Positions 15,010-39,724 of a DNA stretch of 64,000 nucleotides are shown one piece after another. This stretch comes from Undaria pinnatifida. Lineage: Eukaryota; Sar; Phaeophyceae; Laminariales; Alariaceae. The stretch covers positions 9,414,942-9,478,941 of the forward strand of contig JABAKD010000017.1 of NCBI GenBank assembly GCA_012845835.1, written 5' to 3'. Numbering within the stretch: position 1 is the stretch's first letter; each line of letters starts with the position of its first letter. A program made the translations under genes and the position numbers. The notes beneath the pieces were generated by a model. It did no database searches, was not told the DNA's origin, and was given only the letters and a program-made list of their open reading frames with translations.

Positions 15010-15897
15010 ATGGCGAAGCGCAAGCAGCGAGGTAGCCCAGCAGGAGGGGGAGGCGGAGCACGCCTCCTGTCCTCTATGCCAGGTCGTCTTTCAAGAACTT
15101 TCCCGCGGGAACCAAGGCCAGAGTCGCAAGCTAAGCGCGTGGCTACTCTCATCCCTCTCGAAGACTCCTCCCTGAAGCAACGACAACAGCGGCCTGCGAT
15201 GCACAGCCCAGCAGCAGCAGGAAAAGCGGATGCAGCAGCAGCAAAAGTAGAAGCAGAAGCAGCAACAGCAAGAACAGCAACAGTAGTAACACTCAACAGA
15301 GAAGACCCCATCAACAACAGCAGAAGTAGCAGCAGCAGCATGGCAAGAAGCAGCAGTGTAGCTGCTGGTGATTGTGCTAGAGCTGCTAATTTTGCGGAAA
15401 CTAACTTGCGGAGTAGCCCCCTTAAAGAGGGGGAAATGGACCCCACCATTGGTGGGGCGCTGCTTACGGGTCCTGTGAGGTCTGTTGCCCGAGGAGAACA
15501 TTATCCGAGGGGTCCAGAGCGGGAGGAGCCCCCCCGCCAGCCCGGCGTCATGCCTTCGGGTAGTGGCTCTCGTCCAGCTTTAGGGGCTGTGTCGCCGGCT
15601 TCCCCTGCTACAGCTGGGGGGGCGGGGGTGCAGGATTGTTGTGCACCGTCCTCCCCACCACCAGCACCACTATCAGGCAATGAACGTGGTGCTCCTGCTG
15701 TTAGTCCTACTCCTCCTACTAATGGAAGTGGTGCTGCGTGTGCTGCAGTTAACGGTGCGGCTCCTGTCAGCGGTGGTATTAACGGGAGTGCTGCGGGTGC
15801 TGGTGTGGGGCAAGACAGCAAGCAGGCGGCGCTAAAGGCAATGATGTTCAAGGCCAAGATGGCTTCGGACAACATCCGACTACTGCTACACGCAAAG
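15010..15897 (+). CDS. TAZ gene exon 1 (residues 1-296)
   Basis: Opens with ATG directly after 'aataatttcag', which is itself a good splice acceptor (AG at 15008-15009). The ATG may therefore be internal, or the intron may lie in the 5' UTR. An in-frame TAA at 15001-15003 excludes simple extension. The N-terminus MAKRKQRG is basic, followed by long Ala-, Ser-, Gly-, Gln- and Pro-rich low-complexity sequence, typical of disordered regulatory proteins. Residues 272-296 (from SKQAALKAMMFKAKMA to NIRLLLHAK) form an amphipathic helix matching the first helix of TAZ domains, with the LLLHA signature and the first zinc ligand, His294. The exon ends at AAG followed by GTGAGC, a strong donor (phase 0). 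Reading on past the donor gives a Gly/Arg-rich tail encoded by a G-rich run, as expected for intron. Confidence 0.88.

Positions 15898-39724: not shown

What the first reader, a model, noticed from the sequence alone, without database searches (positions are those of the whole stretch)
15010..37182. A TAZ zinc finger split by a 15.4 kb intron inside a zinc cluster
Exon 1 ends in LLLHAK. The next ligands (RCDGVSCKEPGC) lie 15,388 nt away. Exon 2 ends in HYAEC and the last two ligands (YCLVC) lie another 5,365 nt away. Joined at perfect GT..AG sites in matching phases, all twelve His/Cys ligands of a TAZ domain appear with normal spacing. Intron 1 falls between the first His and first Cys of cluster 1. 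Intron 2 falls between the second and third ligand of cluster 3. The motif and junctions are seen in the sequence; the role in transcription is family knowledge. Exon-by-exon annotation would easily miss this gene.
Basis: partly seen in the sequence, partly recalled or inferred. Interest (0 to 1): 0.75.

Follow-up and report, generated by a model that had tools for sequence, protein, structure and literature searches.

The report
Kelp TAZ zinc-finger gene, long introns
A stretch of kelp DNA holds what looks like a real but ordinary gene for a TAZ zinc-binding domain, whose coding pieces are spread apart by a long, repeat-containing intron; the first two pieces fit together well, the third is uncertain.

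Summary
The window appears to come from the brown alga Undaria pinnatifida: one contig of its assembly is 16,510,065 bases, exactly that species' published scaffold N50. A TAZ domain is here. Exon 2 (31286-31443) alone passes Pfam's zf-TAZ cut-off (31.0 bits against 25). Joining exon 1 (15010-15897) raises it to 43.0; adding exon 3 gives 44.9. Junction 1, a 15,388-nt intron between first His and first Cys of cluster 1, is well supported: rank 1 of 1346 open phase-0 donors, strong period-3 signal, and a paralog with a 564-nt intron in the same gap, 2 nt away. Junction 2 is weak: exon 3 adds 1-2 bits, 3 of 8 alternatives tested score higher, and its C-x10-C spacing is abnormal, though it alone has a long open frame near exon 2. 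The gene would not be missed: a six-frame profile search finds exon 2. Introns also split TAZ domains in two paralogs and in human CREBBP. No KAT11 match lies on this contig. Verdict: ordinary TAZ gene with an unusually long intron.

The parts
15010..15897 (+). Exon 1 (296 aa, low-complexity N-terminus, then the presumed first helix and first His of TAZ cluster 1, LLLHAK); possibly not the first exon
   Evidence: +12 bits to zf-TAZ when joined to exon 2; rank 1 of 1346 donors; period-3 value reached by 0 of 444 background windows; codon usage weak
15898..31285 (+). Intron 1, 15,388 nt, phase 0, GTGAGC...TTACCAG, with copies of interspersed repeats
25044..25381 (+). About 340-nt high-copy repeat inside intron 1
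   Evidence: copies at 7367-7728 and 9439-9774; 10,300 first-look candidates for the 1151-nt query that holds it; 40 scored
31286..31443 (+). Exon 2: three Cys of cluster 1, all of cluster 2, His and first Cys of cluster 3
   Evidence: zf-TAZ 31.0 bits alone; in-frame codon score best of six frames; period-3 value 16.2, reached by 1.5% of shuffles; found in the genome's six frames
31444..36808 (+). Proposed intron 2, 5,365 nt, phase 2; the 5' site GTAAGA is well placed (the frame meets TAA otherwise), the 3' site is uncertain
36809..37182 (+). Proposed exon 3 (YCLVC, then low-complexity tail); uncertain; open frame runs on to the stop ending at 37247, good donor at 37183
   Evidence: Adds 1-2 bits; 3 of 8 tested alternatives score higher; no period-3 signal; frame best of six by codon score; only C-x2-C candidate with at least 100 open codons in 31444-38000

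Best explanation
This is a divergent TAZ-domain gene of Undaria pinnatifida with no acetyltransferase domain found on its contig. Its TAZ domain is spread over at least two exons separated by a long ordinary spliceosomal intron that holds high-copy repeats. Shown by sequence: the domain, the exon 2 ligands and a fitting exon 1 donor. Inferred: that the transcript is spliced this way; that the protein folds as a zinc-bound helical docking domain and binds disordered activation domains as TAZ domains of CBP/p300 do; that repeat insertion contributed to intron length. The third cluster is completed by an exon downstream, either the one at 36809 or another.
For: zf-TAZ 31.0 bits for exon 2 alone, 43.0 with exon 1, 44.9 with exon 3. 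Donor at 15898 is first of 1346 open phase-0 donors, score 25 against 20 for the next, with a GTGAGC site. Exon 1 period-3 value 69 against a shuffle mean of 6; its second half, clear of the CAG repeats, gives 51. Of 21 solved sequences listed at E up to 1, 19 are named p300 or CBP, one histone acetyltransferase, one a helicase; best E 1.7e-4. A paralog on C1 has a 564-nt intron in the same ligand gap, top hit 44 against 21 with templates that included its paralogs. The four KAT11 matches lie on C19 and C35. Repeats in intron 1.
Against: No transcript was seen. A rival first-exon end at 22688 scores 41.7 bits, close to 43.0, though its donor is GTCCTT. Codon usage of exon 1 is weak (mean -0.03 over all; +0.13 and best of six frames in its last quarter only). 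Exon 3 is poorly supported. The domain scores below the two spliced paralogs (44.9 against 69.3 and 62.5). Repeats seen within the window cover 13% of intron 1, no more than the flanks at 12-16%.
Confidence: 0.75

Rival explanations
1. Exon 1 and exon 2 belong together, but the reader's exon 3 is wrong; another downstream exon, or none in the window, completes cluster 3.
For: Exon 3 has C-x10-C where the spliced paralogs have C-x4-C. No period-3 signal: 7.9 against a shuffle mean of 6.0.
Against: Among C-x2-C candidates only 36809 has at least 100 open codons in 31444-38000; 0 of 30 shuffles gave such a site, and 1 of 30 in the run with a pyrimidine filter added. Its frame has the best codon score of six. 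These criteria were chosen after seeing the candidate, and the shuffles do not keep the local G+C-rich patch.
Confidence: 0.5
2. The locus is a decayed duplicate: exon 2 is a relic of a TAZ gene and the joins are accidental.
For: Lower domain score than two spliced paralogs, odd cluster 2 and 3 spacing, very long introns, weak codon usage in exon 1.
Against: All His/Cys positions expected in exon 2 are kept, with no stop before the donor, coding-like codon usage in exon 2, consensus-like splice sites at both its ends.
Confidence: 0.15
3. It is a CBP/p300-type acetyltransferase gene whose catalytic exons lie elsewhere.
For: Closest solved relatives are CBP/p300 TAZ domains.
Against: No KAT11 match on contig C23; the four matches reported lie on C19 and C35. 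C19 has its own TAZ exon about 16 kb upstream of KAT11 on the same strand. Rough recalled PHD, ZZ and bromodomain patterns gave no hit in six unspliced frames of the window; this misses exons that split the motif.
Confidence: 0.05

Closest known systems
TAZ1 domain of CBP/p300 and the Undaria TAZ domains on C19 and C1
   Same: zf-TAZ profile, H-x3-C clusters, helix-like stretch before the first His; also interrupted by introns inside clusters (human CREBBP exon 5 starts at c.1217 inside TAZ1, PMC11825781 passages)
   Different: Window gene is more divergent, has a 15.4-kb rather than a 0.5-0.7-kb intron, lacks the intron after the third ligand of cluster 2 that C19 and C1 share, and has no KAT11 match on its contig
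Undaria C1 TAZ gene (C1:3527371-3527499 and the exon 564 nt upstream of it)
   Same: Intron between first His and first Cys of cluster 1
   Different: Intron 564 nt, phase 2, one nt before the Cys codon; in the window phase 0, three nt before it
Plant BTB-TAZ (BT) proteins (recalled)
   Same: TAZ domain without acetyltransferase
   Different: No BTB match in the 473-aa model; BTB elsewhere near the gene could not be tested

Membership tests
TAZ zinc finger (PF02135) | Profile score over the curated cut-off | tested here: met
   40.9 bits for the 473-aa model, 31.0 for exon 2 alone, cut-off 25
TAZ zinc finger (PF02135) | Cluster 1: H-x3-C-x4-C-x4-C | tested here: met
   HAKRCDGVSCKEPGC across junction 1; depends on splicing not shown by RNA
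TAZ zinc finger (PF02135) | Cluster 3 complete, with short C-x4-C spacing as in paralogs | tested here: inconclusive
CBP/p300 (KAT3) acetyltransferases | KAT11 catalytic domain in the same gene | tested here: not met
   4 of 4 reported KAT11 matches are on C19 and C35, none on C23 (six frames, exon by exon)
BTB-TAZ proteins | BTB domain upstream of TAZ | tested here: inconclusive
   Absent from the model; genome search for PF00651 did not complete (last try)
Spliceosomal GT-AG introns | GT..AG ends and matching phases | tested here: met
   splicing itself cannot be tested here

The most novel reading that the evidence does not exclude
Introns were gained twice, or slid by 2 nt, in the same His-Cys gap of cluster 1 in two TAZ paralogs of one kelp (window, phase 0; C1, phase 2), while the C19 and C22 paralogs have none there, and a stand-alone TAZ protein has arisen that may compete with the CBP/p300-like protein for activation domains.
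Probability: 0.2. Interest if true: 0.3.

Novelty: new member of a known kind. Interest (0 to 1): 0.15.

Why it matters
It points to a further TAZ gene in a kelp genome and gives a small example of intron turnover inside a zinc-binding domain. Gene predictors with a maximum intron size could truncate the model, but a profile search finds exon 2 on its own.

Tried and rejected
Relatives outside the species: none in IMG/VR (7 pattern matches, none confirmed) or in prokaryote genomes (85 pattern matches, none confirmed). Weak matches in the own genome on C27, C13 and C30 at E 0.28-1.5 were set aside: the first two carry stops, the third is 36% identical over 39 residues. Rfam gave nothing over its gathering scores in the window. 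Ten long ORFs gave no Pfam match over its cut-off (10 of the 42 ORFs of at least 150 aa). The pattern scan gave one hit, a cluster-1-like H/C pattern on the minus strand at 24133; the ORF holding it showed no zf-TAZ match. The inverted arms 22667-22973/24651-24957 were considered as ends of a transposon and rejected: a third copy at 56696-57013 points to two inverted copies of one repeat. The next exon of the C34 paralog was not found (best score 14 of 522 AG sites); that of C22 was not searched for. The alternatives for exon 3 tested by Pfam were 8 of the 30 others listed, picked by eye. The codon model rests on 26 stretches (12,207 bases) from 30 Helicase_C loci; four loci with stops in the match were left out. 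Paper searches with TAZ and brown algae or stramenopiles (open-access library only) listed none that I recognised as describing this gene; I opened passages of a few only.

Full report
Observation. The letters, coordinates and splice sites are as described. Exon 1 is 15010-15897 (888 nt, phase 0), exon 2 31286-31443 (158 nt, phase 2), exon 3 begins at 36809. The introns are 15,388 and 5,365 nt. The stated 526 residues is wrong: 494 aa to the stop at 37247, or 473 aa to the donor at 37183. The window contains no N.

Where it is. The window is contig C23:9414942-9478941 of a 511,146,479-base genome in 68 contigs. Contig C34 of that genome is 16,510,065 bases, exactly the scaffold N50 published for Undaria pinnatifida, whose scaffold length is 511,280,173 bases in 114 scaffolds (PMC7058681, passages). 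I take the species from this match; no tool named it.

The domain. Pfam zf-TAZ scores 40.9 bits on the 473-aa model and 31.0 on exon 2 alone, cut-off 25; on shorter pieces exon 1+2 gives 43.0, exon 2+3 32.2, all three 44.9. The end of exon 1 alone and the start of exon 3 alone gave no match. Of 21 solved sequences listed, 19 are named p300 or CBP. So exon 2 is a TAZ exon whatever the joins; exon 1 adds 12 bits and exon 3 adds 1-2.

Junction 1. Among 1951 GT sites upstream of exon 2, 1346 have ten open codons before them; that at 15898 scores best against short TAZ templates (25, next 20) and is one of 57 with His in the right place. The next best, at 22688, gave 41.7 bits by Pfam, close to 43.0, but its donor GTCCTT is poor. 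Exon 1 shows base periodicity of 69 against a shuffle mean of 6, and 0 of 444 background windows reach it; the second half, clear of the CAG repeats, gives 51. Codon usage is less kind: mean -0.03 over exon 1 and +0.13 in its last 74 codons.

Junction 2. Downstream, 31 of 1671 AG sites offer C-x2-C or C-x4-C within 12 residues. Periodicity of exon 3 is 7.9, reached by 24% of shuffles and 31% of 560 background windows. For it: the frame has the best codon score of six (0.129, low in the range -0.00 to 0.59 of 19 coding chunks); 15 of 90 open chunks of the window score higher, 7 of them in the tandem array near 46 kb and 5 in the reverse transcriptase frame. It is the only C-x2-C candidate in 31444-38000 with at least 100 open codons; 0 of 30 shuffles gave one, and 1 of 30 in the run with a pyrimidine filter added. 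Those criteria were set after seeing it, and the shuffles do not keep the local G+C-rich patch. I put it near even odds. The spacing C-x10-C differs from C-x4-C in both spliced paralogs.

Paralogs. The genome search reports five zf-TAZ matches, this one included. C19 holds cluster 1 in one exon, then a 464-nt intron after the third ligand of cluster 2; its next exon is a clear hit, 86 against 18. C1 has a 564-nt intron between first His and first Cys of cluster 1 (44 against 21; the templates there included the C19, C22 and window stretches, unlike) and a 662-nt intron after the third ligand of cluster 2 (89 against 18). Spliced, they score 69.3 and 62.5 bits. The C34 and C22 exons also seem to stop inside the domain, judged by donor-like sites. 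In all five places the match covers only part of the profile, so split TAZ domains look like the rule in this genome. Human CREBBP TAZ1 is also split: a table gives exon 5 as starting at c.1217, codon 406, with variants labelled TAZ1 at codons 355 to 432 (PMC11825781, passages).

Type of gene. KAT11 matches are on C19, about 16 kb downstream of the C19 TAZ exon on the same strand, and on C35. None is on C23. Two to four CBP/p300 orthologs with variable presence of TAZ are reported per oomycete genome (PMC5112689, passages); a TAZ row with small counts appears in a transcription factor table of a Nannochloropsis paper (PMC3499364, passage); Ectocarpus has a CBP/p300 homolog listed (PMC3145265, passages), while the text of a later Ectocarpus histone paper has no occurrence of TAZ, CBP or p300 (PMC7784034, term search). 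The window gene is best read as a TAZ protein without acetyltransferase. Function as a docking domain for activation domains is family knowledge, recalled.

Intron length. Mean intron in Saccharina japonica is 1,203 bp (PMC6507550, passages); median in Ectocarpus autosomes 524 bp, with transposable elements making 20.1% of intronic sequence (PMC12477816, passages). A 15.4-kb intron is far above these figures; I saw no distribution for Undaria. It holds a repeat of about 340 nt (25044-25381): the 1151-nt query with it had 10,300 first-look candidates in the genome, of which 40 were scored, and the 39 best matches elsewhere fall on this repeat at 89-94% identity. Other dispersed repeats lie in it too. 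Within-window repeats cover 13% of intron 1, 12% of intron 2 and 12-16% of the flanks, so this count does not show that repeats built the intron.

Verdict. A TAZ gene, first join well supported, second uncertain, biology ordinary.

Noticed in passing
window 25044-25381, 9439-9774, 7367-7728, partial 21673-21769 and 6661-6925: About 340-nt repeat family; 10,300 first-look candidates for a 1151-nt query holding it, 40 scored, the 39 best matches elsewhere at 89-94% identity: an abundant SINE- or MITE-like element.
   Followed up: partly
window 18378-18566, 24328-24494, 57311-57475, inverse at 3970-4150 and 10594-10681: Dispersed element about 170 nt long; the copies at 18378, 24328 and 57311 run into AAC-type repeats, like the 3' end of a LINE or SINE.
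   Followed up: no
window 53212-55593, minus strand: 793-codon open frame with a reverse transcriptase match (RVT_1, 52.2 bits), probably a non-LTR element.
   Followed up: partly
window 46356-46757: 80-copy CCCGA tandem array, 98% matches, open in several frames.
   Followed up: no
G000 C19:9814563-9831500, minus strand: Likely CBP/p300-like gene of the alga: KAT11 exons and a TAZ exon about 16 kb apart on one strand; that they form one gene is inferred.
   Followed up: partly
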